From Buxus sempervirens (lineage: Eukaryota > Streptophyta > Magnoliopsida > Buxales > Buxaceae), in NCBI GenBank assembly GCA_947561395.2, contig OX387184.1, positions 23,798,766-23,862,765 on the forward strand: a stretch of 64,000 nucleotides of DNA, given 5' to 3'. Numbering within the stretch: position 1 is the first letter of the stretch; every line of letters begins with the position of its first letter. Under the pieces are notes generated by a model, which searched no databases, was not told the origin of the DNA, and saw only the letters and a list, made by a program, of their open reading frames with translations. The translations under genes were made by a program, and so were the position numbers. Shown here in pieces: positions 14,613-46,239 of the stretch.

Positions 14613-14619
14613 AGTAGGA

Positions 14620-17663: not shown

Positions 17664-17679
17664 AGCCAAATACTCACCA

Positions 17680-18420: not shown

Positions 18421-18649
18421 GTCAGGGATGAACCGGCTTACTGTCTCGTTCTAGAGGGAGCACCAGAAGAAGAAACACCATGGTTTCAGGATATCAAGAA
18501 CTTCTTGAATAATCGGAGTTTGCCAGAAAATGCCACGGCCACTGAGAAGAGAACAATACAAAGATTGGCTGGTCAGTTTTTGCTAAGTGGTGGGCATGTG
18601 TACAAGAGGTCACATAACGACATTCTGCTAAGATGTGTTGCCAAGGCTG

Positions 18650-20675: not shown

Positions 20676-21554
20676 CTAGTCTCCTAGCCGCTCCTCAAGC
20701 TCCCGAATCCGAGCTGCCTGAGCTGCAATGACTCCTGAAGCCCCCTCTGCAGTGGGATCACTCAGGAAGGAAATGACCTCATCTGAAAGGGCCTGCTGGA
20801 TCCTCATACTCCTAAGGCTGGCCAAAGTATCCTGGTACTTCTGCCGGATCATACGGACATCGAAGCGACGGGCCTGCCTCTGCTCCTCCAGCTTCTCTTC
20901 CACGGCAATACGGCGTGAGGTCTGCTCATCAAGCTGCCTCTCCAGATAAGCACTCTGTATCCTGAGCTCCTGGGCCTCCCGTACCCATATCTGCTGAAGC
21001 CGCTTATGAGAAGCCCGCTCAGACTCTAGAATGTCCTCATAGATGGGAGCCAAGACTACAGGAGGATCTTCGGGTACTGGGGCCTGAGTCTGTATCTGTT
21101 CCTTGATCCAGAAGAAATAATCCTTCACATGGGTTTCCGAGAAGACAGGACCATGCATAAAGCGGACATAAGACCACTCCTTCATCAACCAGGCATTCAG
21201 CTTCATAGAAAGGGGCCCAAGACGATCCTCATATCCACATGGGATGATAATCCCCTGGGTCGCTCGGAACTGACGAAGGACCCGCAAAGGAAGATACAGC
21301 ACTGCATGCTTTAGGCCCGCCAAGATCAGAAAGTTGCGGTCTCGGAAGCTAATCACTGTCTCCGCATTAGGCTGATAAGTGCCAGGCCATCTCACCTGGT
21401 CATCCTGAAGCGAGCCCAAAAAAGTGAACCAGCCTTGTTTGCCCCCTGGAATATCGGGGCACCCCCTGTTGCTCATCAAGAGGGGGACTTTTAGACTCGG
21501 GAAGAAGTGTCGATTGATCTCTTCAATCTGGCTCAAATGATCAAGTAGCCAAAG
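20676..21554 (-). CDS. Element A antisense extra ORF (PMD/DUF7745-like, ORF1-related)
   Basis: A 290-residue open frame lies antisense between integrase and the 3' LTR. It carries LQLWLLDHL, WFTFLGSLQDDQVRWPGTY, AGLKHAVLYLPLRVLRQFRA and KEWSYVRFMHG, then a long helical tail rich in Arg/Glu/Gln. These lines align with the carboxy-terminal two-thirds of the sense ORF1 of element B (44899-46239; GLTHAMPYYPDRILRQFGKS, KEWQHVHILQED). No ATG starts the frame where homology begins; instead the minus strand reads TCTCTCTTCCTTTGCAG immediately before it, a good acceptor, so an upstream exon is likely. Extra antisense ORFs in this position are known in some Tat elements. I place it near the plant mobile domain/DUF7745 proteins from memory. 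Function unknown. Confidence 0.75.
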   Translation of the reverse strand, partial: LWLLDHLSQIEEINRHFFPSLKVPLLMSNRGCPDIPGGKQGWFTFLGSLQDDQVRWPGTYQPNAETVISFRDRNFLILAGLKHAVLYLPLRVLRQFRATQGIIIPCGYEDRLGPLSMKLNAWLMKEWSYVRFMHGPVFSETHVKDYFFWIKEQIQTQAPVPEDPPVVLAPIYEDILESERASHKRLQQIWVREAQELRIQSAYLERQLDEQTSRRIAVEEKLEEQRQARRFDVRMIRQKYQDTLASLRSMRIQQALSDEVISFLSDPTAEGASGVIAAQAARIRELEERLGD

Positions 21555-21589
21555 CTGCAAAGGAAGAGAGATATGTCAGCACATTGTTA

Positions 21590-21740
21590 AGAAAAAAAAA
21601 GAGAAAAGAGAAAAAGAAAAAAAAAGAAAAAAAAAAGAAAAAAGAAAAGAAAAAAAAAAGAGAAAAAAAAAAGAAAGAAGAATAAAATAGAAAAAAAAGA
21701 AGAAAAGAAAAAAAAGAGAAGGAAAAGGAAAGAGCAAAAT
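21590..21740 (+). repeat. A-rich tract in element A
   Basis: About 150 bases of almost pure A/G. On the minus strand it is a long pyrimidine tract just upstream of the acceptor-like site of the antisense ORF. Confidence 0.8.
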
Positions 21741-22127
21741 TGTGCTACAATTTCTATTTTCTCAAAATCCTATTTTTGTCTTGAAATCCACCTCACAGCC
21801 ACGAGAGCTTTGTGGAATTCGGGACAACTTTGGGAAATGTGCTGGTCAAAAGGATGATATCCACTCAATTTTCAACTTGGTTTGATAAAAAATCAGTTTT
21901 TCAAAAAAAATCCTATTTTTGGGCTTAAAATCCACTTCACAGCCACAAAGGGCTCAGTGGAATTTAAGAACTCTTGGAGAGATGCCCCCTTAAAGTGAGG
22001 GCCTTTTGGCAAATCTCCACTCAATAATGGTTTTCTACAGAAATTGAATTAAACCGAGCAAATCATGCTCAAGGGAATGCAATTTGGGCTTGTCTACTCT
22101 TTGCAGCTCACTGCTTCGCAGCTCCCG
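21741..22127 (+). repeat. Two ~143-bp repeats before the polypurine tract
   Basis: TCCTATTTTTG...AAATCCAC(C/T)TCACAGCCAC occurs at 21768 and 21911 in diverged copies. Non-coding. Confidence 0.6.
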
Positions 22128-22141
22128 CAAAGAGGGGCAGT
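22128..22141 (+). other. Element A polypurine tract
   Basis: CAAAGAGGGGCAGT abuts the 3' LTR; element B has CAAAGAGGGGCAGC at the same place. It primes plus-strand DNA synthesis. Confidence 0.85.
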
Positions 22142-24417
22142 TGTAGACACCCCAAATTGCACAAACAATCATCAAAAATCATTATCTCCTGGAAAGCCAG
22201 CACAGAATTTGAAGAAAATAAATTTTTGCCTGTATCCGGATACTCAATCCGGATACAAGTGCTCCTCCCCGTATCCGGATACTCATACCGGATACGTGTG
22301 AGCCCTAGCGTATCCGGTACCATGTACCGGATACCTTAAGGCCCTTTTTTTATCCGGTCTGACATACCGGATACCTTAAGTTTGCTCAAAATTAGGGTTT
22401 TCCGAGAGCTTTTCACTTTTACCATCATGTCCCTCATTAAATGAGGGGAAATCGCGGAAATAACCTTAGGGTTTAGGTTTGAGGGGTTCTAGACATTAAT
22501 TTGTGTCTACCAATGACCTTAGCCCTTGCCTATAAATAGGAGCCTCCTCCTTAAGCAAAGGGCACACAACTCTTGTTTTGAATTCTCACAAAGAAGAACT
22601 CCAAGAGAAGAAGAAAACCGCTGCGGAATCGCCTCCAGAACTCAGGTAAGCCTCAACTTTTCCTTTTATTTTCTGTCTTTACATTCCTAGATCTAGATCT
22701 CTTCTTCTACCTTTCTGTAGTGTAAAGCCTTGTTTGTATGTGTGGAAATCCTTCCCCGGCTCAAAGTATCTCAAGACTCCCCTAGCCGTAAAACGTGAAG
22801 GCGGATCTAGGAGAAACGAGACTGGGGATTGACCCTAGTGCTAGAACCCATGTAGCATAAGGCCTTTTTGATTGATTGTAAACCGTTCCATATTCAAAGT
22901 ACCCTTGATTATCTTAAAGAGAACAGAGGGAAACGATAATGGAACGGAACCCTAGGCTATGTTAGAACCTATTTTGTTGAATCTATATGCATGTGTATGG
23001 ATCTTGCTTGGTTTTTTTTCACTTTTGCACACATATCACTATTTTGGCGGGATAGGCCCATATTTGGGGTTTATTGCATTTATTGTGATAAATCTCAAAT
23101 AAATGGCCTCAATCAATTCTGGAATGCCTTTCGGATGATTTTAAAGTATTTGTGTTCATCTTGCATGAATTTCATTTTTATCAATTTTCGGACTTGTTTT
23201 TACTCAAAAATGGCTTAGCTTGACAGCACCTGTACCCTTACTTCGGACGTCCGTAACTACATCATCCGGATGAATTTTGGGGTAATTCCAGAACCATGGG
23301 AAAGGTGAGGCTGTCTAGTTTATGTCCACCAAATTTCATGAATTTCTATCTAGCCGATTTTTGACACCTCTCTGTCGAAGTTAAGTGGACAGTTCAGGTC
23401 CAAGTACAGAACTTGTCACTTCGACGGACCGCCATGTGTTCGTTTTAAGTCCGATTCGAGTGGTTTTTATTTCTGAGTACTCCTTTTTGAGTCTATTTTC
23501 AAATCCAGTTGGTTTCATATTTTTTGGATTCCATTTGAATTATTGGTAGCCGATTTACTCAGAACTGCTCATTTGCATTTTTCTGGGTAAATCTGTGATC
23601 TTCGGGGCCTGTTCGGGAGACCACCCAAGGCACATCCGAAGGGATTTTTGTATGAGGCTAGTTTCTGTTGAAAGATGGCCATACAGACTTCAATCACACC
23701 AAATTTCGTGGATTTCTATGTAGTGGACTTTTCTAGACAATTTTCCAAAGTTGCCCACTTACTACTTTTAAAAATCCCCAACAGCAACTTCAAAGGAGCA
23801 TAACTCCTAGATTTTTCATCGGAATGAAGTGAAATTTTGCATGAGACTCTTATTTATCATAATATTTCAAATAGAGTTGGTTTGAATCAATTTGAAATTG
23901 GATTTGAATGATTTCAAGGCAAATGGTATACTTTTTACCAAATTTTCCGAATTTGATTTAACTTGGTTTTGAGCAATTTGTGCTTTGATTTCCATCTTTT
24001 GAGATATTCCAGAAATGATATTGACATAAGAGAGGATCTAAAATCCATTTAGATCTTCATGTGAAAATATCATACATTAATCCTTTTTCAAGGTTTTCTA
24101 TGATTTTTAGCAAGCTTTCTTACTTTATTTTTTGCATGAACATACACTTGGCAACCACTTCGTGTGGATGAATGGGGGTGCCTAACACCTTCCCCCGTTC
24201 ATAATCTAATCCCCTTACCCATCTCTGGATTTGATTTTCAAGTAGGATTATTTTTATCCTAGAATTTGTCTTTTGGCTATTTTTGCCTACCTTTTAACTC
24301 TTTGGTGTCCATTCTCACCCCAAAATCATGAATGGTGGCGACTCTCCCAATTTTTGCGTTGAGCCCGTGTGTTGACGGAGGGACGATCACTCCGGTGATT
24401 TTTTCCCATGTCTCACA
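22142..24417 (+). repeat. Element A 3' LTR
   Basis: 2,276 bp, identical to the 5' LTR apart from about five substitutions seen by eye. It is followed by the GGAGG target duplication and the second part of element C's array. Confidence 0.95.
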
Positions 24418-24560
24418 GGAGGTAAGGAGAAAAGATTTTTTTTTGGACCGCCACTTCGGCGGTCATGAGAAAAGATTGTTTTTTGGACCGCCACTTCGGA
24501 GGTCATGAGAAAAGATTTTTGTTTTGGACCGCCATTTCGGAAGTCAAGGTAGAAGATTAA
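24418..24560. repeat. CGCCACTTCGGAGG tandem array, right part
   Basis: Continuation of the array at 5281-6249, separated from it by element A. The first five bases (GGAGG) are the second copy of the target duplication. Confidence 0.9.
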
Positions 24561-26434
24561 AACCGCCATTTCGGAGGTAAAGAAAGAATCTCTGGGATCG
24601 GAAACCACAAGAGTTGATTTTGATTTTGGAAATGCGGAGCGTTGATTTCCAAAGGATCAGTTTGGAGAATTCCAAGGAATGATAAGGGATTTGGGATGGT
24701 GGGAACACAAAGTATTGATTTCCATCAGGATTTGGGAAACTACAAGAGTTGATTTCCCAATTGGCTGACTTTCTTTAAGATTTTTTTTTATTTCTCTTTT
24801 CCTCTTTTTTTTTCTCTTTTTTTTCTTTGTCCGATGGCCATCGGCAAAAATCAGACTTTTTTTCCACTTCCTTATTTTGGGCTGTTTCACAGCCAATTGA
24901 AACTTGGTTTAAGCATGGGGGATTGAAACCATTGTTTACCCTAAGGCAAATTTAATGTACACTTAGAGGCAATTCAAATCTTTGAAATTTTTTTTGGTTT
25001 TTTGGTTTTTTTTTTGGTTTTTTTTAAATGAGTTAATCAAGCATGCTTATGCAGATGATCTTGAAGTGTGTGCACTTGATGCATGAAGATGCGTACACAA
25101 AATTAGAACCAACATTACCATTCTGCATAATTAAAAAGTGTGTGCATAGTCCTAAAAAGGTTGGTGCTCCTTGAGGCACGACCTCTAGACATACTTGTGT
25201 ATGGAAGCACATATGAGTCCAGATCAGCCTTCTTTCATCTATTCTTTCTTCTACCTTTGATTTCAGGTGTCAGACCAAATGATAATTAAAATCTGCAGAA
25301 TTTCATCTTAAGGGCTTTTGAGAACCCAGAAGAAGGGTACAAATTTACTTCAAGGTTGGTAGGCTGAATTCCTAAATCTAGGGTTTTATGCCCCTGATTT
25401 GATCTGGCATATTTCAGTCTGTTTGTCTGATCTGGCCGGCTTTCATCTGCTCAAAAGGCCGACCTGGACTCGAAGTGCTCCCAATGGACTCGATGGGTCA
25501 AGGCCCATGGTTCACAGGACTCAATGCATGGATTTGGGGTGGCTCCCTTGATCAAAATTTGGTTGGCTTCCTAAATTAGGGCTAAGGCAGCCCATGATCT
25601 AGGGTTCACTCAATTCAATGCAAAAGAGCGGGGGTATTTGGCCCTGATGGACTCTTGGATTTTGAATTAATTTTATCCATCTTCACTTTAATCATTCAAA
25701 TCTCATTCACGCTGCATTCACAAAGCTGAGGTTTATCAGAATCAATAGGTGGGGAAAGGGTACCCAGCTCGAGACATTTGCCTATAAGGGTCTGAGCCAC
25801 GTACTAGACCCTCGCCTACGACGGCATGAAGCTAGTGGCGCTAAGGAATCCAGAAGCCTGGGGAGATGGGTTTACCCTGCTTTCCCTGGCAAGCCACGGG
25901 AGCGTGGGGCTAATACCATCCCAAAAATAAGTTCATCATTTTAAGAAGGGTGGCTGCTAAAGAGATCTAGGTTTTGGTAAGGAAGAGCAGCATTTCATTT
26001 CATCACAGCATTCAGATCGGATCATCCATGCAAACTTCCTCGTGCGTGTCACCCCACATAGTTTAATGTAGGAAAGGAAATCATTCATGGTGTGGTGGAG
26101 TGTTCATGTGTGCAGTTGGGCAAGGTGTTGTGTCTATTTGGGTGAGTCTTGGATATTTGATTGACAAAGGATTCCTTGTTATCTCTTTATAGTGAAGTGC
26201 AGAATTGGCACTCAATATGATGTCCGGGAGAGTCCCTAGTTAAGTGGAGGGTCACAGGGAACCACTTAAATTCCACTTTCCTTAAGCAATTATCTCGTCC
26301 CTTTGACATGACTCCCCAGATCATGTAATTACAAGTATTCCGCATCTCACTAAAGTAAGATAACAGGTAACACCTAAACCGATCTATATCCATCAAAATT
26401 GACTCTTTGAACCAGGGTCCAACTGGGTTGAGGG
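24561..26434 (-). other. Element C leader
   Basis: Non-coding. A pyrimidine-rich run lies at 24775-24830 and a T-rich run near 24985-25025. From about 25650 to 26434 it is homologous, in reverse complement, to element B's leader, including a stretch with CACGGGAGCGTGGGGCTAAT (matching B near 44030). No extra ORF like those of A or B is recognised. Confidence 0.6.
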
Positions 26435-26453
26435 CTCCCCAGCGGAGTCGCCA
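26435..26453 (-). other. Element C primer-binding site
   Basis: On the minus strand TGGCGACTCCGCTGGGGAG, next to the LTR end. It differs from A's site at two positions. Confidence 0.75.
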
Positions 26454-28138
26454 AGCTGTGCGCACCCCATTTCGAGCTGCACGTGAGGTGCATGCGAAGT
26501 GATGCTCACCTCGGGACTGTTTTGGAGTCGCCACTGCCTGAGAGGTGTAGGCAGACACAAAGGGGCACCTATCCAGGCCTAATTTTCTGGTCTGCGGCTT
26601 TTTAGAGATCTGGACAAGTTCTCGGTTACGTCTAGGGAAGTCTGAAGACACCCTAGCCCGCCCCGTCGGTTGACAGGTCCCATGGGTCTCCTTGGTTTGA
26701 GTCAACTTAGTTTTCACCCAATTCCTAGGCCAACATGCACATTTATTTGGTCTGGTGGGGACCATTGAGGGTGTGGGTCTCCTTTTTATTTGATTTTATC
26801 TTTTTATCAATTAATGAAGTGGGTCTGGTATGGGCCCCATTGGAAGGCCTAGTGGAATCCAGGTTGGGCTTAAGTCAAGCCCAAGGCCCAATTTGGGTTA
26901 TTGGGTAACCCTTATTGGATTTTGGCTATTTGGTTTAAAGGTTTTTTGAATATTTACAAAGTTAATGGGTTGAAGCTTTTTAGGGCCCAATGGACTTGGA
27001 TTTGGCCCATGAGCAATTAACCAAGTGGCCTTTAGCCCATTTATCAAAACGGACCTTAGTTGGGCCGAACGGGGTGTGGGCCCTATTGGAGGGCCCACGA
27101 AGTCTTGGTGGGCCCACTTAGGCCCACAGTCTCAAAATGGGCCTTAAAAAGTCTAAATAGCCCAATGGATCGGGTTAAGTTTATTTGGGTCGGATTGGGT
27201 CCGACCGGGTTAGAAAAAATGGATTTTTAAGTTATTTGCAAACTTGACCGTATTCTAATCACGGTCTGAACTGAACCGTATTCCAAATACGTTTTTGGCC
27301 CGATTTCCCAAAAATGCCGTGATTCCGGCCGGATCTAGTTTGCCGATTCCTTTTCGCCGTCCGCCGACTTCTGTTGGGAGTTTTAGCACTTTGAAATGGT
27401 TCAAAGTTCCTACCTTTGGTTCAAATGTCTTCTTTTTTGGTGTTCCGCCGAAAGAAAAGATTTCATTTCTTCATTGCACTTTCGGTTCGTTGATGAATCT
27501 GCATGTGTGGGGAATCGAGAAGGGAGAGAGGGGAAGAATTACGGGGTACAAAAGATGATTAAAGGAGGACAAATCCCTCCCTAAATTAGTTGATCAAATT
27601 AACACAAAAAAGGGTTAGTGCACAAATGTTTGACTAAGACCCTTCTCTTAATGAGAAATCTCTCTTCTCCCGTCTTTTTCGTGTAAGGGAACTCCCCTCC
27701 CGGGGAGTCCCATTTGTATGCACAAAATAAACAAACAGGTTAGAAATAAACACGGTAAAGGATAGCCTTTTAAATAGCCAGAAAGATAACTTGTTCAAAA
27801 TATTTTGATAACAATGAATGTTACAAACAAAGCAATGGAAAAACTTACAGTGTTATTATTACCTTGCTCTTAGGTGTAGAGGTTCTCCGACTGATTTTGG
27901 CAGCGCTTCCGCACTCCCGTTGATTTCCAAAGGTGGATTTGAAAAGGGGTTCTCTTGCCTTCGGGTTGAAAGGATGAAAGGAGAAGAGAATGGGTAAGGT
28001 TTAGGGGCAAAAATGGGAATAAAAACGGAAGTTGAAAGTGACAGATGGTTTTGGCAGAGCTCCGGACGTGGAAAAATGCAAGGAGGGAGATCAAGGAGGC
28101 TAAGGGGCCACCCCTTTCCAAATGGAGGCTGGCCCCCC

Positions 28139-28146
28139 TTTTTATA
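28139..28146 (-). promoter_or_regulatory. LTR C TATA box
   Basis: TATAAAAA on the minus strand, just downstream of the palindrome block and only about 20 bases from the point where LTR D inserted. Confidence 0.65.
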
Positions 28147-28164
28147 GGCAAAAATTGGCCGGAA

Positions 28165-28169
28165 CCGCA
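28165..28169. repeat. Target duplication CCGCA, left copy (solo LTR D)
   Basis: CCGCA before LTR D; the identical copy follows it at 30569-30573. Confidence 0.9.
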
Positions 28170-30568
28170 TGTTAGCACCTGATTTTTGCACCCCCAAAAT
28201 AAAGAAAAATGAAAAGTCAAACTAAAATTCAAACCCTGAGGGGGTCAAAAATTGACTTTTTGATTCAAGTAAATTTGGCCATCAAACTTCATCTCATTAA
28301 AAAGAGCATTTCGACACGATTCTAACGCAACTGAATTTGCTGGAATCGGAGCCCAGATGAGAAAGATATGAACTGGTCAAACTTTTGGGGAGCAAAAAGT
28401 CGACCCCAATTCAGCTGCCAAACTTGACCCCAGTGGACAGGTGGTTCCGAGCCGGTTCCAACGACACTAAGTTTGCTGAAATCGGACACCAGATGAAGAA
28501 GTTATGAGCAGTTGAAGTTTCAGAAAAACTGCCCATGTGGCAAAAAAGGCAGCAAAAATGGAATAAACCAATAAAATAAATAAGATAAATGTGTTTAATA
28601 ATATTTTAATAAAGAGAATCTCGCTTTTAATAAAATAATCGAATAAAAATCTTGCAAAAAACCAAATTGAATAAAGGTTTGAAATCCAAACATTTTAAAA
28701 ACGTGCTGGACCGTATTTGATTTACGGGCAGGGCATGCCCGTATTTGAAATACGGGCGAGATTCCGGAAGAAAACACGCGTCACCGTACGGAGGGACACG
28801 CGTCCCGTACGGCCGAATCTGCGATAATTGCAAATATTCGTTTTTCCCCCGTATTTGAATTACGGGCAAGGCACGCCCGTACTTGAAGTACGGGCAAGGC
28901 ATGCCCGTATTTCAAATAAGGGCACGGAAATTTTGCATATAAATAGAGAGGCCATCCCCCTCATTTGAACAAGCCATCACCCTTTGGCCATCACCCCTGC
29001 TCTCCTAAAATTCCCCTCGACCAAATGCTGCTATCATGCTGACACTCCAGCACCTAACCTCTTCTTTTATCCCCAAACTACCCCTAGGTTCATAAAGCCA
29101 TGCCAAAATCATGCAGAAAATCTTCTTTGGTTTAACTTTCAAACCCATCTCCTAACCAAACTTTGTCTAACGATTTTCAAATATTTGAGAGGACGCGGAA
29201 GCGCTGCCAAATTCACCGGAGAATTCATCATTAACTAAAAACCATATTGTAAGTATGTTGGATTTTATAAATTCTTCATTTCTATTTTGCTTCTAAGTTT
29301 CTTTTAAACACCTTCTTATGTTACTAACTTGATTGCTGTTTTGAGTATCATGAGGATATGGTATTATGAAATGGATCATTACAAGGAAGAAAGAAAGGAA
29401 GTGCCTAAAGAACACTTCAATTAATTTAAGTAAATAACCTTTTTTTTTTTGAGTTCTTAATGTGAAAAGATTGAACCCTTCTTGAAGACAAATGGGTTCC
29501 CTATGATTTCCCATTTCCCCTCTTCACAAAATGATCATGGACAATCCAGAAGGATGCCGGCATTCATATTGAAAAAGAAGAAAGAAGAAGGAGGCCTTTT
29601 AGGCCAAATTAAGCCACATGAAGCATCTGGATGAGTTGAAGAAACCCACAGAAGCCACTGGAGGTCCCAAGAAAGCCACGGAGATGATCCAGATCGGAAT
29701 CTGCAGCAAACATGCAAAATGGGTCGCGTCTGTAAACTCAGGCCGGTCCAGCCTGGACCGTATCTGATTCACGGACAAGGGGGACCGGAATCCATTCACG
29801 GTCAAGGCGGACTGTAAAGAAAACACGGGCAAATGTAAAATAACCTAAAAAGTGTGATTTCTTGGTTCGGTTGGACTTGATCCGGCCTAAGCCGACTTGA
29901 ACCACTCCCTTTAACCATTTTGGGCTTTCTTAAGCCCATTTTTGGACTGTGGGCCTAGATAGGCCCATCAAGACTCCCCTTTGGCCCACTTATGGGGCCC
30001 ATTTTAGACCGGCCCAAACCAAGCCCGTTTTCAACAAACGGGCTCCAGGCCAATTGTCCCTTCGCTAATGGGCCAACTCCAAGCCCACTAAGCCCATTGT
30101 ACCTGTAAATAGTTTAAGTAAATAACCAAATGGGTTACCTAATAACCCAACTGGGCCCAAAGCCCAACCATGGCAGCCCACGGGTCTTCCAACGGGACCC
30201 AGGTCCGACCCACTCCACTTAAATCAATAAAAAGATAAAGTCAAATAAAAGGGACCCACACCTCCAAAGGGCCCCGCTAGACCCAATAAGTAGCATGCTG
30301 GTCTAGGAAGGGTGAACTTGACTCAAAAAACCAGGGAGACCCGAGGGACCCGTCAAACCGACGGGGCGGACCGGGGTGTCTTTAGGACTTCCCCGGATCG
30401 TAACCGAGGACTTAGCTAGAACTCTGAAAAGCCGCAGATCAGACTTAGACCTAATTAGGGCAAAACCGTGTCTGCCTGCACTCTCAGGCAGTGGCGACTC
30501 TGAATGTCCCCAGGCACGCACCAAAGGTGCGCCCGGTGTGCGATCTAGGCCAGGTTTAGGTGCGCACA
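28170..30568 (+). mobile_element. Solo LTR D, Tat-type (B subfamily)
   Basis: TGTTAGCACC...GTGCGCACA, 2,399 bp, with 5-bp duplications on both sides and no internal region, so it is a solo LTR formed by recombination. It shares its start, end, palindromes and GGGCCC-rich part with the LTRs of element B. The TATA box is at 28938-28945 and a donor-like TTGTAAGTATG at about 29249. It lies in the palindrome block of LTR C. Confidence 0.92.
28700..28925 (+). promoter_or_regulatory. CCCGTA..TACGGG palindrome block in LTR D
   Basis: About six dyads of the type CCCGTACTTGAAGTACGGG and CCCGTATTTGAAATACGGG, plus GGGACACGCGTCCC, directly upstream of the TATA box. A second set (CACGGACAAGG, ACCGTATCTGATTCACGG) occurs downstream at about 29755-29825. 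Confidence 0.8.
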
Positions 30569-30775
30569 CCGCACTTTAAGTGCGGTTCGGTCACAACCGT
30601 ACTTCAAGTGCGGTTCCTGCCAAATTACACTAAAAATGAAAAAACCGCACTTCAAGTGCGGTTGGCATTAAAAATGTGCGAATTTGCGCGGATCTACCAG
30701 CTGTCGCCATACGGGACACGCGTCCACCTTCTAGAAGATCAAAACCGCATTTGAAGTGCGGTTTAGACCAAATCG
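30569..30775 (-). promoter_or_regulatory. CCGCACTT..AAGTGCGG palindrome block in LTR C
   Basis: Four to five dyads such as CCGCACTTTAAGTGCGG and CCGCATTTGAAGTGCGG. Before LTR D inserted, this block lay immediately upstream (minus strand) of the TATA box at 28139-28146. Confidence 0.8.
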
Positions 30776-31351
30776 GTTTGCACACGTTTTTTAAATGCCG
30801 GATTTGAAATCTTTTATTAAATTTGATTTTTTGAAAAGATTTTATTCCGATTTATTATTATTTTATTCTAAATATCTTTAGATATTTATTAAAATATTAT
30901 TAAAAATTAAGTTATTTTCTAAAAACAATTATTTTATTCATTTTTTCTGCTTTTGCTTCTGTTTTAGTCACATGGGCAGTTTTCTTGAAACTTCAACTGC
31001 CCATAATTTTTTTGTCCGATGTCTGATTTCAGCAAACTTAGTGTCGTTGGAATCAGCTCGGAATACTCTATCCAATGGGATCAAATTGGGTAGTTGAATT
31101 GGGGTCAAGTAAAAAGTCAACTTTCGCTTCCCCAAAAGTTTGACCGGGTCATAACTTCCTCATCCGGACCCCGATTCTAGCAAACTCAATTGCGTTGGAA
31201 CCGTGTCGAAATGCTCTTTTCAATGAGATGAAGTTTGATGGCCAATTCTCTTTTGATCAAAAAGTCAAATTTCAGCCCCCTCAGGGTTTGAATTTTTAAT
31301 TAAAAATTTCATTTTCTGCATTTTTTGGGGTGCAAAAATCAAGTGTCTACA

Positions 31352-33963: not shown

Positions 33964-33971
33964 CTTCCAAT

Positions 33972-34546: not shown

Positions 34547-34554
34547 CTTCCAAT

Positions 34555-36724: not shown

Positions 36725-36726
36725 GG

Positions 36727-36800
36727 CTAGGTCGGCATGGGCATAGTACGGCCCAGCACGCTTAAAGCGTGCCCATGCCCGGCCCGACATGTGACCAACC
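36727..36800 (+). repeat. hAT left terminal and subterminal repeats
   Basis: CTAGGTCGGCATGGGCATAG followed by GC-rich subterminal motifs, including the inverted pair GGCATGGGC and GCCCATGCC. The partner is at about 63120-63306. Confidence 0.6.
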
Positions 36801-37193
36801 TAGCAAGGCACTGTCCACATCAAGCGGGCGTGCCTACTAGGGCTGCAACTTGGTTCGAGTAAACCCGAAACCAACCAGAACCAAACCGATTTCAGTTCGG
36901 TTCGGTTCGGTTCGGTTCGGTTCGGTTATTTAAAAGTTCGGTTCGGTTTTGGTTCTTAAAAAACTAACCCGAATTAAATCGGTTTGGTTTTGGGTTAAGT
37001 GTTCAGTTAAACCGAACCGAATTAGAATATTTACCTAATCCGAACTGAACTGAACCGAATTATTATATATAAAATTAAAGTTTATAAATTTACCTTTAAA
37101 ATTTAATAAAATTACTATCCCACCCCTCTCTTAAGTCGATCTCCTTCATACAATTCTTTCAATCTTCCAAACCCTAACCCATTACCCCAACTG

Positions 37194-37984: not shown

Positions 37985-38124
37985 AAGTCAGCCGACCGCT
38001 GATTCCCATCCTCATCTGCTTCAGGTAATCCCCTCCTTTCCCTCTCTTTCGCGTCTCTTTCCCTCCCTCCCTCCTTCTCGTCTTTACCTCCTTCCCTCAC
38101 TCTCGTCTCGCTTGCTCCCTCCCT

Positions 38125-38130
<6 letters not shown>

Positions 38131-38170
<40 letters not shown>
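38131..38170 (+). repeat. (CT)n microsatellite
   Basis: About 20 CT units in a pyrimidine-rich leader just before the SPT5-like start codon; pyrimidine-rich 5' UTRs of this kind are common in plant genes. Confidence 0.9.
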
Positions 38171-38173
<3 letters not shown>

Positions 38174-38209
38174 GAGATATCTAGTTTCCCTCTCAAAGAA
38201 ACCCTAGCA

Positions 38210-38480
38210 ATGCCTCGCAGAGACGAAGATGAAGATTTGGATGAATACGAGGAAGAAGACGAAGAGGATGCAGGCGGTCGCAGCAGAAAACGCGGACGAT
38301 CCGACTTTATTGATGATGCTGCGGAGGAGGATGATGAAGAAGAGGACGAAGAAGACGATTGTGATAGTCGTCATAGGAGGTAGAAGAGGCATTTGGGGTC
38401 TGAATTCTTCGAACTCGAAGCCACTGTCAATAGCGATGACGAAGAGGAGGAAGAAGAAGGGGAAGACGATACTAGTTTTC
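38210..38480 (+). pseudogene. SPT5-like transcription elongation factor, captured 5' fragment
   Basis: From ATG at 38210 the frame reads MPRRDEDEDLDEYEEEDEED, SRKRGRSDFIDDAAEEDDEE and, past an in-frame stop at 38381-38383, KRHLGSEFFELEA and SDDEEEEEEGEDD. Acidic runs around RKRGRS(N/D)FIDD are the amino-terminal signature of plant SPT5, the partner of SPT4 in transcription elongation by RNA polymerase II. Only this first-exon portion is present; the NGN and KOW domains are absent and the sequence beyond about 38480 looks intronic. The GAAACCCTAGCA leader before the ATG is typical of a plant 5' UTR. I infer capture of genomic DNA by the hAT. An unrelated acidic nuclear protein is the alternative. 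Confidence 0.7.
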
Positions 38481-38943
38481 GTCAATACTCTTTAGTTTGT
38501 GATAATATATGCTTGGTTAGCTTGTTCTGTGGTTCGAATTTGGTCTCAGGGCTTGAAGGCTGAAGCCAGAGGTACGCTCAATGTCAACCAGAGTCGAGTT
38601 TAATGGTTACCTGATCTAGATCTTTTTATTCTGGGGATTCGATAGGTGGGTGCTGATCATGCTAATGGCTACCTGAAAAATGTGGTAGCAATACAATTAC
38701 TTTGTAAATCGTTTCTCTTCTTTGCCTATTATTTTTTGGTGTTGTTGAATGATGACAGACATGATCGTGTTAGCCCGATCAGAACTGAACCGATCTCATG
38801 TAATTCGGTTCGGTTTGGGTTTCGGTTATTATAATTAACTTCATTTCAGTTCGGTTTTGGGTTGAATCTGTGTAGTTTCGGTTTGGTCTTGGGTTAACAT
38901 CAACCTGGACCGAATCGAACCGAGTTGCACCCCTAGTGCCTGC

Positions 38944-39682
38944 CATTAGGCTCGTCGTGCCGGACGCGAGGCACGACAAACAACTAACCGTTTTTCCCCC
39001 CCAAAAAGTGTTTTTTTTAAATTTCCTTTTACCATTTTATCCCCCAACAACTATATAATAGCCATATTTGGGCGGTATATTTGTAATTGATTGTAAGTGA
39101 CCATTTCTACCCTTCCAACGGCCAAATAACAACCATATTTGAGGGTAGAGGTGGTAAAAAGCCCTTTTGGTTTTCTATAAAAAGGACTAACCCTTCCCAT
39201 TCAAAACCACACCTCTTCTACAATATCTCTTACCTTCTTCATCTTTATAGCTTTCAAGTAATTGTTTTTAATAAATGGCTTAAGCATCAAATGTGGGAAG
39301 TGGATTATAGAGGTTTAAGGCTTCAACTACAAAGTTCAAGCTTCATTCTCAAGAAGTATTCTTCTATTTAATTTTTGATTTTAAATATTATATATATGAG
39401 TAAGTTTCTCCTTCTACCTTTCTTATTATTTGAAAGCCTAGTATAGTGGGTGACATACTATGTAGCTAAGTGCATCTCTATGAAAATTCTGTCACAAAGG
39501 ACGAGATAATTGCCTAAGGAAACTGGGTTTTAAACGGGACCATTTGTGACTCTTCCAGTTACATGGGAATTTTCCTGGTGCATTTTTGCATGCATTGTTC
39601 CTTATTTTACTATAGGCAATGTATCACAAAAAATTATTATCATATTATTTACTAAGTCATTTATTTTTTTACAAATTTGAAA
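38944..39682 (+). other. hAT 5' untranslated region
   Basis: Non-coding, between the Pack-hAT insertion and the transposase start. It has a TATA-like TTCTATAAAAAGGAC near 39172-39186, so the hAT promoter may lie here. Several short frames have no recognisable content. Confidence 0.5.
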
Positions 39683-41107
39683 ATGGACCTTAGGCACCCT
39701 CATTACTTTAACACTGAGGAAAGGGAGTATCTTAGACCCCTTTGTGACCCACCTTTTTTTGAAGATTTTGATGAGACTCAACCCCCATATAGTGACCTTC
39801 CCATCCTAGATAATGACCCTGAGTGCCCTCCCCTCCAAGATTCCATTAGAAATGGGATCATCTTCAAGACCACCTAGGAGCAGTAAGAGGAGTAGAACCT
39901 CTGGTGTCTGGAAAAATTTTGCAATTCAAACTATAGGAAGGGAAGAGGGCAGCTTATAACCACAGCAAAAAAATATTAGCTGCAAAAGTTCAGGTGTTAC
40001 AAGCCACTTTTAGCGGTATTTGCAGAAATACCTTCCAAAACATGGCCAACTAGACCCCAGGCAAACCTAACTTTCCACCAGTAGCTCCAATTTGGGAAGC
40101 TTTATTTTTAACCAAGAAGTGGCTGGGCAAGAAATTGTTAAGTGGGCAATACAAGATGAATTACCCTTTAGACTAATAGAAGATAAAAGATTTAACCGTC
40201 TAATAACCAAATATCTAGCACCAGGATTTAAACTATTCTAATGCCACACTCTAAGAAGTGATGCTTGTAAATTATATATACGCATGAAACAAGGATTAAT
40301 AGATACTTTTTCAAACTGTAGTTTTAATGTGGCTTTAACCTTAAATATCTGGACAAATAGACAAAACATAAGTTTTTTAACTATAACTGCACATTATATA
40401 AATGAGAATTGGAGCATGGAAAAAAGAATAATAACTTTTGTGTCACTTTCTAGAACAGCTAAAGTAGATGCTATAGCATAGAATATAAGAGAGTATAAAT
40501 TACAATGTAAAATAATTGCTTTAACACTTGATAACTAATAATGTTGTAATAGACACACTAAGACAACACTTAAGTTTAAATATAGATGTATGTTTATTTC
40601 ATATTCAATGTGCTTGTCACATCCTAAATTTAGTTGTGCAAGATGGATTAAAAATTGTGCAATGTCATTTAATGAATATTAGATACATAGTAAGATTTTT
40701 AAAATAATCTAGCAAAACTGCTAGATAATTTAAAAATTATTGTACAAGTTTGGGAAAGAAATATAAAAAAATTACCTTAGATTTTGACCATATATGGAAT
40801 TCAACATATTTAATTTTAGATGCTGCACTAGCATTTAAACAAGAACTTACACTATTTTATAAAACAAAAGTGTTTGGAAGTGAACTAGAAGAACTTGACT
40901 GGCAAATAACAGAAATTTTAAGAGAATTTTTAAAAGTTTTTTTGATGCAACAACATTGTTATCGGGGGTTTATTACCCAACATCCCCGAATATTTTAAAT
41001 ATACTATTTCAAATAAGTTGTTGCTTTGAAAAATATGAAGCCATGCCCGTTGCTAATGCTATTTGCCCAGTAATGGAATTTAAAATTTTAAAATATTGGC
41101 AGGAAAT

Positions 41108-41112
41108 GCCCC
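41108..41112. repeat. Target duplication GCCCC, left copy (element B)
   Basis: GCCCC before the 5' LTR; the identical copy is at 59950-59954, and the transposase sequence reads straight across one copy. Confidence 0.93.
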
Positions 41113-43478
41113 TGTTAGCACCTCATTTTTGCATCCCAAAAAATGAAGAAAATGAAAATTTCAATTAAAAAGTCAAACCCTGAGGGGGCCAAAAATTGAC
41201 TTTTGATTCAAGTAAATTTGGTCATCAAACTTCATCTCATTGAAAAGAGCATTTCGGCACGGTTCCAACGCAACTGAATTTGCTGGAATCGGAGTCCAGA
41301 TGAGAAAATTCTGAGCTGGTCAAACTTTTGGGGTGACTTTTTGCTCGACCCCAATTCAGCTGCTAAACTTGATCCCAATGGATAGGTGGTTCCGAGCCGG
41401 TTCCAACGACACTAAGTTTGCTGAAATCGGACACCGAACGAAGAAGTTATGAGCAGTTGAAGTTTTAGAAAAACTGCCCATGTGGCAAAAAAGATAGCAA
41501 AAAATGGAATAAACCAATAAAATAAATGTGTTTATTAATATTTTAATAAAGAGAATCTCGCTTTTTAATAAAATAATCGGAAAAATCAAATGAAAATCTT
41601 GCAAAAAACCAAATTGAATAAAGGTTTGAAATCCAGACATTTTAAAAACGTGCTGGACCGTATTTCAATTACGGGCAAGCTTCTAGAAGAGGACGCACGT
41701 CGCTGTACGGCGGGACACGCGTCCCGTACGGCCGATTCGCAAGATTTGGAAATGTGCGTTTTTCGCCCGTATTTGTATTACGGGCAAAGCATGCCCGTAC
41801 TTGAAGTACGGGCAAGGCACGCCCGTACTTCAAATACGGGCACGCCCCTTTTTGCCTATAAATAGAGAGGCCCCCCCCCCCCTCATTTCAACAAGCCTTC
41901 CCCCTTAGCCTCTCTGCTCTTCCTCTTTGCCAACCACGGCAAACCTTTGCCCAATTACCACCACCCCCACACCCAAACCCGTTTAATACCCAAAATGCCC
42001 TTGTCATCCCAAAACCCTGTCTAAAACCCCAAATGCCTCTTTTTGAACCCAACCTCCTACCAAACCCCTCTCAAAAATCGACCTAGAAAATTTTGAGGAC
42101 GCGGAAGCACTGCTTAAATTGTCGGAGAACCGTAACACCAACCAAACAACTAATCACATTGTATGTATGTTCTTATTTTAAATTAAGTGAATTTTGGTTT
42201 TATTTTTCTCTTCCTCATTGCCTCTTTTCGTTTTTATGTTATTTCTAACACTGTTTTGAGTGTTGCATATGATGAGGAATTGCATCTAAAAGTGGTTTTT
42301 CCTATGCAAAAAAGAGGTGATAACAAAGGGTTATCAAAAATGTTTCAAAAATGGAAATTTGACTCCATTTGATCACAATTATGGGAAGAAGATTGAAGTT
42401 ATTTTTGAACATCTAATGTCCCCTGTAAATCACCCCTTTCCCATTCCTAAAAGTGATGATGAATAACCAGGAAAGGATCTTGCTTGCTCAAAGAACAAAT
42501 AAGAAGGAAAAGATGGTCATTTGAACTAAAAGAAGGAAATGCAACACATTGAAGGAGCTGGAACCATCCCAGAAGATTGCTGAAGACCTCAAAGAAGCCA
42601 CGGAACTGATCCCAAGCAGAATCGGGAGCAGAAATGAAAAACTAGCCGCACCCGTAAACTCAGAGTGGTCCGGTCAGGACTGTGTTTGCTTCACGGGCGA
42701 GCCAAACCGGATTTCGTTCACGGGCAAGGGTGGACCGTATAGAAAATACGGGCAGATGTAAAAGTAATATAAAAAATGTAATTTTTCGGCCTGGTTGGAT
42801 CTATTCCGACCTAAACCGGTTTAAACCGACCCAAGAAGTTGATTGGGCTATTCTTAGCCCTCCATGGACCATATGGGCCCATCTAGACCACCTTGGGCCC
42901 ACACTTTTGACTGGCCTATACCAGGCCTGTTTTCAATAAACAGGCGCAGGCCCCTTGACCTTTGGCTCATGGGCCCATTCCAAGCCCACTAAGCCCAAAT
43001 AAGTTGTAAATAAATAAAGTTTAAATAAATAACCAAATGGGTTACCCAATAACCCAACTGGGCCCAAGGCCCAATCATGGCAACCCACGGGTCTTCCAAC
43101 GGGACTTGGGCCTGACCCATTTCACCTAGATAAATAAGATAAAATCAAAATAAAAGGGACCCACACCTTCAGAGGGTCCCACCAGACCAAATAAAGCAGC
43201 ATGCTGGTCTAGGAAGGGTGAACTTGACTCAAAAACCAGGGAGACCCCAAAGGACCCGTCGAACCGACGGGGCAGGCTGGGGTGTCTTAGGGTTTCCCCA
43301 GACGTAACTGAGGACTTAGCTAGAACTCTGAAAAGCCACAGACCAGACTTAGACCCGGATAGGGCAAACACCGTGTCTGCCTGCACCTTTCAGGCAGTGG
43401 CGACTCCGAAAGTCCCGAGGCACGCACAAACCCAACGTGCGCCCCGTGTGCGATCTAGGCCAGGTTTAGGTGCGCACA
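41113..43478 (+). repeat. Element B 5' LTR
   Basis: TGTTAGCACC...GTGCGCACA, 2,366 bp. Two copies of the TTCCAACG motif (138-bp spacing), palindrome block, TATA box at 41857-41864, donor-like TTGTATGTATG near 42160, and a GGGCCC-rich second half. Confidence 0.95.
41660..41850 (+). promoter_or_regulatory. CCCGTA..TACGGG palindrome block in 5' LTR B
   Basis: Dyads such as CCCGTACTTGAAGTACGGG and GGGACACGCGTCCC, ending a few bases before the TATA box. The 3' LTR (58085-58310) has one extra dyad unit of about 37 bp. A related set lies downstream at about 42650-42760. Confidence 0.8.
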
Positions 43479-43481
43479 GCT

Positions 43482-43500
43482 TGGCTACTCCGCTGGGGAC
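43482..43500 (+). other. Element B primer-binding site
   Basis: TGGCTACTCCGCTGGGGAC, three bases after the LTR and the same type as in A and C. Confidence 0.8.
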
Positions 43501-44805
43501 CCCTCAACCCAGTCGGACCCTGGTTATCAAATGAGTCAACTTAGGTGGATATAAGCAGATTTAGGAAGTACTTCTTGTCCAACCTTAGTGGTTTATGGAA
43601 CTTATGCAATTACATGGTATTGGGGGATCCTGTCATAAGGACGAGATAATTGCCTAAGGAAAGTGGAATTTAAGCGATTCCCTGTGACCCTCCACTTACC
43701 TGGGGATCCACCCAAGCATTGTATTGCATACTGTTCTGTATTCTCACTATAAAAGTGACATTAAGGAACCCTTAATCAGCCCATTATCTGAGAATCACCC
43801 GCACAGACACAGCACTTAGCTCCACTGCACATACAAGCACCTCACTACATCGTGAATGAACTTTTAACTGCGTGGGGTGACATGCATGAGGGAGTCTGCA
43901 TGGATGATCCGAACTGAATGCTATCTGCACCATGTGAATGCTCTTCTTAACCAAAACCTAGATCTCTCTAGCAGCCACCCTTCTTCAATCGAGAAAATTA
44001 CTTTTGGGATGGTATTAGCCCTACGCTCCCGTGGCTTGCCAGGGAAAGCAGGGTAAACCCATCTCCCCAGGTTTCTGGATTCTTCAAGCGCCATTGGTTT
44101 CTTGCCATGATACGCGAAGGGTCTAGTACTTGGCTCAGACCCTTGAAGGCAGGTGCCTTGGGCTGTGTATCCTTCCCCACCTATTACTTCTGATAAACCC
44201 TGATGTGAGCATGAACATGAATGAACAAATAGGGGTAAAATCAATCTGGGGCATTAACCCCCGCCTTTGTTGGTCTTAACCCTAATTTAAGAAAATTAAC
44301 TCGATTTAATCCGCGCATCCAAGTCGGTCTTGGTTCAGTCGAAAGCCGGCCAGATCAGACAGAAATGGGTCAGAACAGAGGCAGAAAAACCCTAGAGATA
44401 GGATTTCAGCCCACCTGCCGAGTGGCAAATTTGTACCCTCCTTTTGGGTTCTCAACAACCCTAAAGGTGATTCTCTTTCCAGATTTATTTTGTAAATTTC
44501 GCCCTCGAAGGCAAATTGTAAATATTGTTTTCAGTCCGACACTAGGGGCAGATGAAAGAGCAGATGAAAGGGCAGATGAAAGAAAATGCCAGCTAAGACC
44601 TGAATGTATTCTCCAAACATTTAAATGGCATAACCCTTAAGACCCCATAACTTGAGTGCTTGGATTTGATTCTTGTGATTGATAATTACATAAACTACTT
44701 AAGCATTAATTTAATTTTTGCATATCTTGTTGCATGCCTTAGACTAATTTAGAGTTTTTGGTGGAAAACCCTAAATTGATTTGGAATTTCAATCGGATAG
44801 TCGGC
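43501..44805 (+). other. Element B leader before ORF1
   Basis: Non-coding and homologous in reverse complement to element C's leader at about 25300-26430. It has a pyrimidine-CAG site (ATTCTCTTTCCAG near 44470-44482) that could act as an acceptor and a short GCAGATGAAAG repeat near 44550. Confidence 0.5.
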
Positions 44806-46239
44806 ATGGCATCTTCATCCTCGACTAAGAGAGTTCGCTTCCCTAGGATAGAGAAGTGTGCCTTTGATACCCCTTGGATCCGTTCTTAGACAAGGCAATT
44901 GCAAGGAGATGAACAAATTAAATGGGAACAGAAATACCACATGGGACAAACTCTATCCCTATTAAATGTGCCCATTAATTGGGACATGATTCAAGCGGCC
45001 CTACCTTTCTGGGATCCCCAACTTTCACTCTTTAGATTTGGAACTAATGAGCTGACTCCCACAATTGAGGAATTCGAACTATTCCTCCGATTCCGTGACC
45101 ATGGAGAACCAGCCAGGCCAAACCTCAAAGATTGCTACAAGAATGAAGCTTGTACTTTCTTTGGCCTACCCAGAGGAGAATTCCAGACTTTAGGAGGTGA
45201 CCAAGCATTCACTCGGGTCTCTAAAACCTTCCTTGCTAAAAAGATAAGGGACAAAAAGCAGGAAAGACCCCGTGTTTGGTGGGACACCTTCACCCTCGTG
45301 GTTCTGTCACAGCTTTTCTTTCCTACTGGGGGAGACACCATTAATTTGGCCCTCATGGAAATTGTAGACCATCTTCAAGTGAAATTCCGAATTGCACCAC
45401 TGATCCTTGCTCAGTTATATCATGCCTTGACCATGACCAAGAACGGAACTAGAAGGTTTCAAGGATGCGCTCCTCTCCTACACATTTGGCTCCAAGATCA
45501 CCTGATGGTTGCTGAACCTGTCAGCCCACGTTATGGGTATGTCCGTGACAATGTCACATTGATGGCCCGAAGAGAGATTAGACCAGACTTACCCTCCAGA
45601 GAGGACTGGTTTGACCACTTTCTCCAGTTGAAAGGAGAAACTGATATAAGATGGGGAGGCACATTTAACCAAACATATACCCCCGTCATAGCTTTCAGGA
45701 AAAGACATTGCCTAGCCTTGATAGGCCTGACTCATGCCATGCCATACTATCCGGATCGAATTCTGAGACAGTTTGGGAAGTCTCAGGGAATACCAATCAA
45801 GGATGAGGCGGAAGAATTAACTGGCCCACTTACATGGGAATTGAAGAAAAAATTGGTGAAGGAATGGCAACATGTGCACATACTCCAAGAGGACATTTTC
45901 ATTGCATCCGACGTTCGTAATTACGAACAATTGATTGCTCGAGAAACTGGCCTAGACAACCCACCTCCTCTCCATATTGTCACCTTTGACGATATCCCAG
46001 TTCCACCCCCTGACACATACAGGGATAGGGTGGCCGAACTGCGGGAATCTCATTCTCGAATCCACCGTGCATACGTGGATTCCGAGTGTAAAAACAAGCA
46101 GGCCAATGAGGCCCTTCAACAGCAGCTTGACACCATGCGCAGACGCGCAAAAGAGGACCGACGTCTGCGGAATAAACTTCTGCGTGCCTTGAAAAGGCGA
46201 GACGTATCTTCTCATTATGATGATGACCAACCTAGCTAG
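44806..46239 (+). pseudogene. Element B ORF1 (PMD/DUF7745-like extra ORF)
   Basis: An extra protein gene between LTR and gag, as in Ogre elements. The amino part has WDPQLSLFRFGTNELTPTIE, the line typical of plant mobile domain-related proteins (FRFG..EL.PT.EE). The carboxy part (LLHIWLQDHL, WFDHFLQLKGETDIRWGGTF, GLTHAMPYYPDRILRQFGKS, KEWQHVHILQED) aligns with the antisense ORF of element A. It ends in a basic, Arg/Lys-rich helical tail. It is nearly whole, with about one interruption near the start. Role in the element's life cycle unknown. Confidence 0.8.

What the first reader, a model, noticed from the sequence alone, without database searches (positions are those of the whole stretch)
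20676..46239. Homologous extra ORFs in opposite orientation and position in two related Tat elements
Element A has a long antisense ORF between integrase and the 3' LTR (20676-21554, minus). Element B has a sense ORF between the 5' LTR and gag (44806-46239). They share a run of motifs in the same order: LWL.DHL, W..F...L....RW.GT, a GL.HA..Y.P.R.LRQF core and KEW..V. So one protein family is carried before gag in sense by one element and after pol in antisense by the other. Extra ORFs in each position are known for Tat/Ogre lineages; that the two are the same family, moved and flipped, suggests that the protein is useful to the element and that its expression has been rewired, perhaps to a separate antisense promoter in the 3' LTR or post-pol region.
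Basis: partly seen in the sequence, partly recalled or inferred. Interest (0 to 1): 0.8.

Follow-up and report, generated by a model that had tools for sequence, protein, structure and literature searches.

The report
Spliced antisense gene in jumping elements
Two related plant retrotransposons carry the same extra gene, one backwards and split by an intron and one forwards without it, and both carry arrays of a precisely spaced paired DNA motif in their promoters, which gives a concrete way to test what this long-mysterious gene does.

Summary
Homology is confirmed: the A and B ORFs align at 32% identity, E=1e-33. Both belong to the Plant mobile domain (PMD)/DUF7745 family.

The A ORF is not a whole gene but the second exon of an antisense gene. 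Close relatives keep exon 1, an upstream promoter-like region and a GT-AG intron; the window copy lacks exon 1 and that region. B is continuous at exactly that position in 45 of 45 B-clade loci. A distant PMD gene has an intron at the same point. Both antisense exons are under strong purifying selection (omega about 0.1). A (antisense) and B (sense) are sister clades; B is best read as moved, flipped and without intron.

Unexpected: LTRs, the A leader and the antisense promoters carry dyads with exact CCG-N11-CGG spacing and family-specific flanks. Genome-wide, two half-site types give 1,310 and 20,488 dyads; the 50 places listed for each all have that spacing although the gap was free.

Best reading: a dimeric regulator, perhaps the PMD protein itself, acts on sense and antisense promoters. 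Binding is untested. Extra PMD ORFs are known; the intron contrast and shared dyads did not turn up in my searches.

The parts
6247..8525 (+). Element A 5' LTR
   Evidence: 99.7% identical to 22139-24417
22139..24417 (+). Element A 3' LTR
6344..6478 (.). Four CCG-N11-CGG dyads (CCGGATA/TATCCGG half-sites, about 39 bp apart) in the A 5' LTR, upstream of a TATA box at 6639; repeated at 22236-22370 in the 3' LTR
   Evidence: 4 observed against a shuffle mean of 0.12, maximum 2 of 500 shuffles
10052..10185 (.). Four CCG-N11-CGG dyads in the A leader before gag
   Evidence: shuffle mean 0.01, maximum 1 of 500
12342..19485 (+). Element A gag-pol: gag, G-patch, RT, RNase H, second RNase H (RVT_3), integrase, in several frames
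20676..21554 (-). Exon 2 of the antisense PMD/DUF7745 gene (C-terminal half of the domain and a long tail); all that was found of the gene in this copy
21555..21709 (-). 3' end of the intron: polypyrimidine tract, CTGAC branch-like site, TTTGCAG acceptor; homology to exon-1-bearing relative L002 stops at about 21709
41112..43480 (+). Element B 5' LTR
57537..59951 (+). Element B 3' LTR
41658..41839 (.). Four CCG-N11-CGG dyads (CCGTA half-sites) in the B 5' LTR; the last one ends 17 bp before the TATA box at 41857; two more start at 42707 and 42735; similar array at 58092-58273 in the 3' LTR
   Evidence: 6 in the LTR against a shuffle mean of 0.26, maximum 3 of 500
44806..46239 (+). Sense PMD/DUF7745 ORF of element B, continuous at the position of the A-clade intron (junction 45483/45484); stop codon at 44887-44889 in this copy
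52338..55702 (+). Element B RT, RNase H and integrase, broken into several frames

Best explanation
Tat-type elements in this plant carry one Plant mobile domain (PMD/DUF7745) gene in two arrangements. In the A clade it is a two-exon gene on the opposite strand after pol, with its own promoter-like region and a spliceosomal intron. An antisense intron is not removed from the sense genomic RNA, so it survives retrotransposition. In the B clade the gene sits in sense before gag under the LTR promoter and has no intron, as a sense intron would be lost through the RNA intermediate. Most likely the antisense, intron-bearing state is older and B arose by copying a spliced antisense message (or an equivalent template switch) into the sense strand. 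The protein is conserved because the element uses it, most likely as a dimeric regulator that acts, directly or with a partner, at CCG-N11-CGG dyads shared by LTR promoters, leader and antisense promoter: an autoregulated activator or anti-silencer of its own family. Shown by sequence: homology, intron, intron-orientation contrast, purifying selection, dyad arrays and their fixed spacing. Inferred: antisense transcription and splicing, the direction of the flip, dimerisation, and binding by the PMD protein. The window's A copy lacks exon 1 and the upstream region and is most likely a deletion derivative.
For: Intron: GT donor in 13 of 13 and AG acceptor in 12 of 13 A-clade loci, 67-176 bp, same position. 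B continuous there in 45 of 45 B-clade loci, which are colinear with the window's B arrangement. Distant PMD gene L063 with an intron at the same position. Selection: exon 1 omega 0.08-0.10 at dS 0.13-0.56; exon 2 window A against L002 20 synonymous to 4 nonsynonymous changes. Trees: A and B nearest each other, R lineage apart; RNase H-integrase agrees (A-B 63%, each 34-35% to L067). Dyads: 44 at N11 against 30 over the 25 other spacings within 500 bp upstream of 13 exon-1 starts; as many in 500 shuffles: 0 times in 11 loci, 2 in L051, 9 in L059; 42 in the window against a mean of 7.8 per other spacing. Genome: 1,310 and 20,488 dyads, reversed-pattern controls 3 and 0; the 50 listed places of each (first in coordinate order, many related by descent) share one spacing. 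A link to VANC: the PMD of L063 matches DUF1985 at E=9.3e-6, below that family's cut-off, and DUF1985 is a domain of VANC proteins (PMC5735166, figure legend).
Against: No RNA data. No spliced-junction retrocopy: the 90 places of the probe all look like intron ends. The R lineage (L064) is antisense too but lacks this intron; it has another one, so antisense does not guarantee retention. No N11 dyad upstream of three R-type PMD genes (L070-L072), though their true starts are unsure. Elements without exon 1, such as the window's A, have amplified, so the gene is not needed in cis. The structure prediction failed (mean pLDDT 37.6) and gives no DNA-binding fold. A strict TATA pattern lies near the start in only 7 of 13 loci. 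Exact words are repeated beyond shuffles around CCG only in the A family and L061; elsewhere the signal is the spacing, not the word. Half-site type follows the element tree, which shared descent alone would give. None of 8 A-, B-, R-type or L030 proteins matches DUF1985, even at E 10.
Confidence: 0.5

Rival explanations
1. The dyads are sites of a host transcription factor family that the elements exploit; the PMD protein works otherwise, for example at chromatin like MAIN/MAIL1, whose direct DNA binding is also unproven.
For: No known DNA-binding domain was found in A or B and no usable model. No N11 dyads upstream of three R-type PMD genes. The host PMD 'DOWN' motif CATGCAGTTT in PMC9899485 (passages read) is unlike the dyad.
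Against: One fixed geometry with at least four different flanks (CCGGATA, CCGTA, AACCGAA, AACCGC/T) fits a diversifying element-encoded protein better than one host factor. By positions, arrays stand at LTRs and at the internal promoter region of the same elements.
Confidence: 0.35
2. A and B (or A/B and R) took up host PMD genes independently: A from an intron-bearing gene in antisense, B from a processed or intronless copy in sense. No gene was moved and flipped inside the element lineage.
For: The two orientations are separate clades. A solitary intronless PMD ORF (L030) beside an exostosin gene groups with B. The tree is unrooted and in the N-terminal half R falls with L063, on a long branch.
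Against: Gene tree and RNase H-integrase comparison agree, with A and B closest in both, as expected from vertical descent.
Confidence: 0.25
3. The antisense transcript acts as RNA (double-stranded RNA or interference with sense transcription) and the ORF is incidental.
For: Proposed for antisense ORFs in general in PMC7264820 (passages read).
Against: Omega near 0.1 in both exons and a frame kept over two exons show selection on the protein.
Confidence: 0.05

Closest known systems
Ogre/Tat extra ORFs with Plant mobile domain (Neumann 2019 PMC6317226; PMD-A clades, Ikeda 2017 PMC5418596)
   Same: Same protein family (PF10536/PF24924); Gypsy elements with a second RNase H between RNase H and integrase.
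   Different: The passages that I read do not describe an intron in the antisense gene, its absence in the sense gene, or shared dyad arrays.
Retand antisense TRP28 (PF04195) genes (Vicient 2025 PMC11963269)
   Same: Antisense gene between pol and the 3' LTR, thought to be regulatory.
   Different: Different domain: neither the A nor the B ORF hits PF04195. The word 'intron' does not occur in that paper's text.
VANC/VANDAL anti-silencing system (Hosaka 2017 PMC5735166; PMC10398659)
   Same: Works alike if the model holds: an element-encoded factor and family-specific short motifs repeated in non-coding parts of its own family. Possible distant kinship: the PMD of L063 matches the VANC domain DUF1985 below cut-off.
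   Different: VANDALs are DNA transposons (recalled); the VANC21 motif is YAGTATTAY, not a fixed-spacing dyad; A, B, R and L030 proteins do not match DUF1985; no binding shown here.
HTLV antisense gene HBZ
   Same: Antisense gene of a retroelement (as told in PMC11963269 and PMC7264820).
   Different: Analogy only; no relationship tested.
Grande gene23
   Same: Antisense extra ORF with a promoter upstream of it and a nuclear product (PMC7264820, passages).
   Different: Protein kinship with PMD not tested here.

Membership tests
PMD/DUF7745 protein family (PF10536, PF24924) | Score above the curated Pfam cut-off | tested here: met
   B: 80.8 bits against 26 (DUF7745) and 78.7 against 34.9 (PMD). 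A exon 2 alone is below (12.1 and 12.2 bits) and is assigned by its match to B. Exon 1 of L002, L060, L061 and L062 is above both cut-offs.
Ogre/Retand type of Tat lineage | Additional RNase H between RNase H and integrase | tested here: met
   RVT_3 at residues 124-242, between RT_RNaseH and Integrase_H2C2/rve in A; B only by homology of its RNase H-integrase part
Ogre | Primer binding site complementary to tRNA-Arg | tested here: inconclusive
   TGGCGACTCTGCTGGGGAC (A) and TGGCTACTCCGCTGGGGAC (B) follow the 5' LTRs; not compared with a tRNA, resemblance recalled
Retand with TRP28 antisense gene | PF04195 in the antisense ORF | tested here: not met
   No PF04195 in the A or B ORF at E 0.1; 0 genome hits, but that search's controls rang nowhere either, so it does not show absence
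VANC family | DUF1985 domain | tested here: not met
   0 of 8 A-, B-, R-type and L030 proteins at E 10; only the distant PMD L063 matches, 26.1 bits against a cut-off of 35.1; 3 genome hits, all below the cut-off
VANC-like sequence-specific anti-silencer (function) | Element-encoded protein binds its family's own motif and removes silencing marks | not testable with these tools
   Motif arrays present; binding and methylation not testable
Spliced antisense gene | GT-AG intron joining two coding exons in phase | tested here: met
   13 of 13 GT, 12 of 13 AG, phase 0 in A-clade relatives; not met by the window copy, which lacks exon 1. Transcription not testable

The most novel reading that the evidence does not exclude
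PMD proteins of Tat retrotransposons are dimeric, sequence-specific activators or anti-silencers that recognise CCG-N11-CGG dyads. They control both the LTR promoter and their own antisense promoter, with recognition flanks that diversify between element families: a retrotransposon counterpart, and perhaps a distant relative, of the VANC system. The host silencing proteins MAIN and MAIL1 would then be relatives of an element-encoded regulator.
Probability: 0.38. Interest if true: 0.86.

Novelty: new variant of a known kind. Interest (0 to 1): 0.62.

Why it matters
What the extra ORFs of Tat/Ogre elements do has been open for years. The strand-specific intron is sequence evidence that the antisense gene has been transcribed and spliced, and its absence in the sense version fits editing of gene structure by passage through RNA. 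The dyads give a defined candidate target, present more than twenty thousand times in this genome, that one DAP-seq or EMSA could test against the PMD protein. A positive result would give a biochemical role to a domain shared with the host silencing proteins MAIN and MAIL1.

Tried and rejected
Spliced retrocopies of the antisense message: a 29-letter probe across the exon junction gave 90 places; all read as pyrimidine-rich intron 3' ends, none as the spliced junction. TRP28 as the antisense domain: no hit in the genome, control uninformative. Solved structures for B: none by sequence at E 1. AlphaFold model of B from a two-row alignment: mean pLDDT 37.6; only a helix at about residues 400-440 is confident; not searched further. 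My rule 'antisense keeps this intron': refuted as a strict rule by the R lineage. Simple repeats as the source of the dyad signal: the N6 peak in the window lies mostly in 1-6246 and the N11 peak does not. DUF1985 in the A, B or R proteins: not found. Literature: searches listed no paper that I recognised as describing a CCG-N11-CGG dyad in these elements or introns in their antisense PMD genes; they were narrow word searches of an open-access library. Steinbauerova 2011 could not be read.

Limits of counts: exon-1 starts of L032, L047 and L059 were placed by alignment offset; in L051 and L060 the codon aligned to the ATG is not ATG. L047 and L059 were left out of dN/dS; L060 exon 2 was used only to its frameshift. 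The L068 row was cut in a wrong frame and is not used; L068 rests. Minus-strand introns are printed one base too long. L032 and L040 have no integrase in the fetched stretch, and L065 and L066 no pol, so their orientation is unknown.

Full report
What was checked. A (20676-21575, minus) is open but has no ATG at its start. B (44806-46239, plus) holds a stop at codon 28 and is open from 44890. They are homologous: BLASTP 115 bits, E=1e-33, 32% identity over 256 columns, A matching only the second half of B. B belongs to DUF7745 and PMD by Pfam; A alone is below the cut-offs. Element A lies between LTRs 6247-8525 and 22139-24417 (99.7% identical), element B between 41112-43480 and 57537-59951 (93.8%).

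The A ORF is an exon. Upstream on its strand stand a long polypyrimidine tract, a CTGAC site and TTTGCAG, directly before the first codon shared with B. The genome (G000, 676 Mb, unnamed) holds many copies: 131 scored matches of A at 96% identity or more, 119 of them without stop, and 94 of B, 77 without stop; only the best candidates are scored, so these shares are biased upward. In a PF24924 search 59 of 118 scored hits end at profile position 200-213. Reading such loci shows a two-exon gene: exon 1 (about 237 aa, ending APILQ) and exon 2 (284-297 aa, starting LWLLDHL). In 13 of 13 loci the intron begins GT, in 12 of 13 it ends AG (L047 is changed), its length is 67-176 bp and its phase is 0.

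Orientation. The PMD gene is antisense to integrase and beyond it in L001, L059-L062 and, by fragments, L047 and L051; in L002, L004 and L005 by alignment to the window, and in L003, L006-L008 by alignment to L002. L032 and L040 could not be judged. In B, 45 of 45 B-clade loci are colinear with the window segment from near the end of the 5' LTR through the PMD ORF towards gag, and all 45 are continuous at the intron position (alignments). These 45 include the window copy, belong to one family and are not independent.

The window copy is decapitated. Of eight A-family loci, five (L002, L003, L006, L007, L008) have exon 1 within the fetched 1.5 kb and three (L001, which is the window copy, L004, L005) do not. 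Homology between the two kinds stops inside the polypyrimidine tract, at about 21709. In the 50 places listed, five sets of positions look like whole elements: LTR dyad arrays 20.1-20.7 kb apart with an internal array 4.7-5.7 kb before the second. The other listed places are single arrays, one pair 9.5 kb apart and one leader site. In the window the LTR arrays are 15.9 kb apart and no dyad stands between integrase and the 3' LTR. The LTR dyads listed include the same strings as in the window's LTRs, and the internal ones the same strings as upstream of exon 1 in L003. So the window element is most likely a deletion derivative, 4.2-4.8 kb shorter, which still inserted recently; this rests on positions, not on read sequence. 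L004 and L005 exon 2 is nearer to L006, which has exon 1, than to A, so the loss may have arisen more than once or been spread by recombination.

Selection. By Nei-Gojobori counts, exon 1 gives omega 0.08-0.10 in pairs with dS 0.13-0.56 (L040/L062, L040/L032, L062/L032, L051/L060); exon 2 gives 0.07-0.14 in the same pairs; window A against L002 has 20 synonymous to 4 nonsynonymous changes. Integrase, for comparison, 0.02-0.03 in the two pairs with a finite dS. The antisense frame is therefore kept as a protein, though less tightly than integrase.

Ancestry. A distant PMD gene (L063) has an intron at the same place (LLQ|CW); it lies beside a frame with a SWIM match just below cut-off on the other strand, so it is probably in a MULE. 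A third element lineage, R, is antisense beyond integrase in the two places tested (L064 with L067; L068), but L064 is continuous at that position and has another GT-AG intron after the domain. In trees of the two domain halves A is one group (81/81 and 89/94), B one group (95/92 and 100/98), and they are nearest each other with R apart. The trees are drawn at the midpoint, deep branches are long, and in the N-terminal half R falls with L063, so a separate uptake by R is not excluded. RNase H-integrase agrees: A-B 63%, A-L067 34%, B-L067 35%. With antisense in both A and R, and the intron of A shared with L063, the simplest history is antisense first, with B moved, flipped and without intron. 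A spliced antisense message used as template would do all three in one step; this step is inference. Independent capture is not excluded.

Promoters and dyads. Upstream of exon 1 a strict TATA pattern stands at -117 in the five A-family loci and at -87 in L051 and L060 (counted there from a codon that aligns with the ATG but is not ATG); six of 13 loci have none near. Starting between about -130 and -270 there are inverted CCG motifs. Exact words repeated beyond shuffles are seen for CCG motifs only in the A family and L061, but the spacing is fixed throughout: within 500 bp upstream of 13 exon-1 starts there are 44 CCG-N11-CGG dyads, 1-4 in each, and 30 for the 25 other gaps together. Dinucleotide shuffles reach the observed number in 0 of 500 for 11 loci, 2 of 500 for L051 and 9 of 500 for L059. 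Flanks differ by family: TATCCGG in the A family, CCGTA in L060 (CCGTA/CCGTG in L051), AACCGAA in L061, AACCGC/T in most dyads of L032/L040/L047/L062. In the window the same geometry fills both LTRs of A (4 each), its leader (4) and both LTRs of B (6 and 7, most with CCGTA); 42 in all against a mean of 7.8 per other gap. Shuffles: A LTR mean 0.12, leader 0.01, B LTR 0.26 (500 each). In the B LTR the array ends 17 bp before TATAAATAG. Genome-wide, TAACCGAA-N(4-10)-TTCGGTTA has 1,310 places (reversed control 3) and GTATCCGG-N(6-12)-CCGGATAC 20,488 (control 0). The listing is cut to the first 50 places in coordinate order, all on contig C1; in both searches all 50 have the gap that equals CCG-N11-CGG. 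Copies share descent, but the inner letters differ widely. No N11 dyad was found in 1.7-1.8 kb upstream of three R-type PMD genes (L070-L072), nor in the locus of the solitary ORF L030.

How it most likely works. The fixed spacing and dyad symmetry point to a dimeric DNA-binding factor. The element encodes a conserved protein with a long C-terminal helix, perhaps a coiled coil (confident at about residues 400-440 of B), and the dyads stand at its own promoter region and in the LTRs. I give 0.35-0.4 that the PMD protein (alone or in a complex) is that factor, and about 0.35 for a host factor. The nearest working model is VANC (PMC5735166, passages). The eight other PMD proteins scanned do not match it. 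Host PMD proteins MAIN/MAIL1 are needed for genes with a 'DOWN' motif, but direct binding is not shown and the motif differs (PMC7156037 and PMC9899485, passages).

What is known already. Extra ORFs in either strand and position, with a call to look for spliced antisense transcripts (PMC7264820, passages); PMD found in 57% of Ogre elements in a survey of extra ORFs (PMC6317226, passages); PMD-A clades only in Gypsy elements (PMC5418596, passages); Retand antisense TRP28 (PMC11963269, outline and parts 1-3 of 5); PMD and G-patch in plant Gypsy elements (PMC9289625, passages). From recall only: Steinbauerova 2011 sorted Tat extra ORFs into two broad groups. New here as far as my searches reach: the intron-orientation contrast and the shared dyads.

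Noticed in passing
L030 and L069 (G000 C21:4718575-4729500): An intact, intronless 457-aa PMD/DUF7745 ORF, 45% identical to B, with no LTR, pol or N11 dyad found around it and Exostosin_GT47 frames (PF03016, E=3.1e-32 and 3.5e-23) about 1.2 kb downstream; possibly a domesticated or solitary gene.
   Followed up: partly
L063 (G000 C14:24634300-24636700), residues 72-193 of the PMD frame: The PMD matches DUF1985, the VANC domain, at E=9.3e-6 below cut-off: PMD and the VANC domain may be distant relatives. At least five similar exon-1 hits in the genome.
   Followed up: partly
One search places, e.g. C12:33557562 and 33560985: Twelve pairs of PMD matches about 3.4 kb apart on one strand: an R-type element family seems to carry two PMD genes in tandem, antisense to pol in the one tested (L068).
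   Followed up: partly
window 14569-16140: A G-patch domain (PF01585, E=1.2e-7) in the A pol upstream of RT; G-patch in plant Gypsy elements is already reported (PMC9289625, passages).
   Followed up: partly
window 10487-12166: Tandem array in the A leader (71-bp unit, 17.5 copies at 10909-12166, with longer units before it), near the dyad array but without N11 dyads.
   Followed up: partly
window 28711-28877 and 30569-30745: Further CCG-N11-CGG arrays of two flank types (CCGTA and AACCGCA); the stretches 28150-29003 and 30783-31345 nearby are 78-86% similar to the B LTR.
   Followed up: no
window 12342-19485: The A gag-pol is split over several frames although its LTRs are 99.7% identical; whether this is an intron, recoding or damage was not examined.
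   Followed up: no
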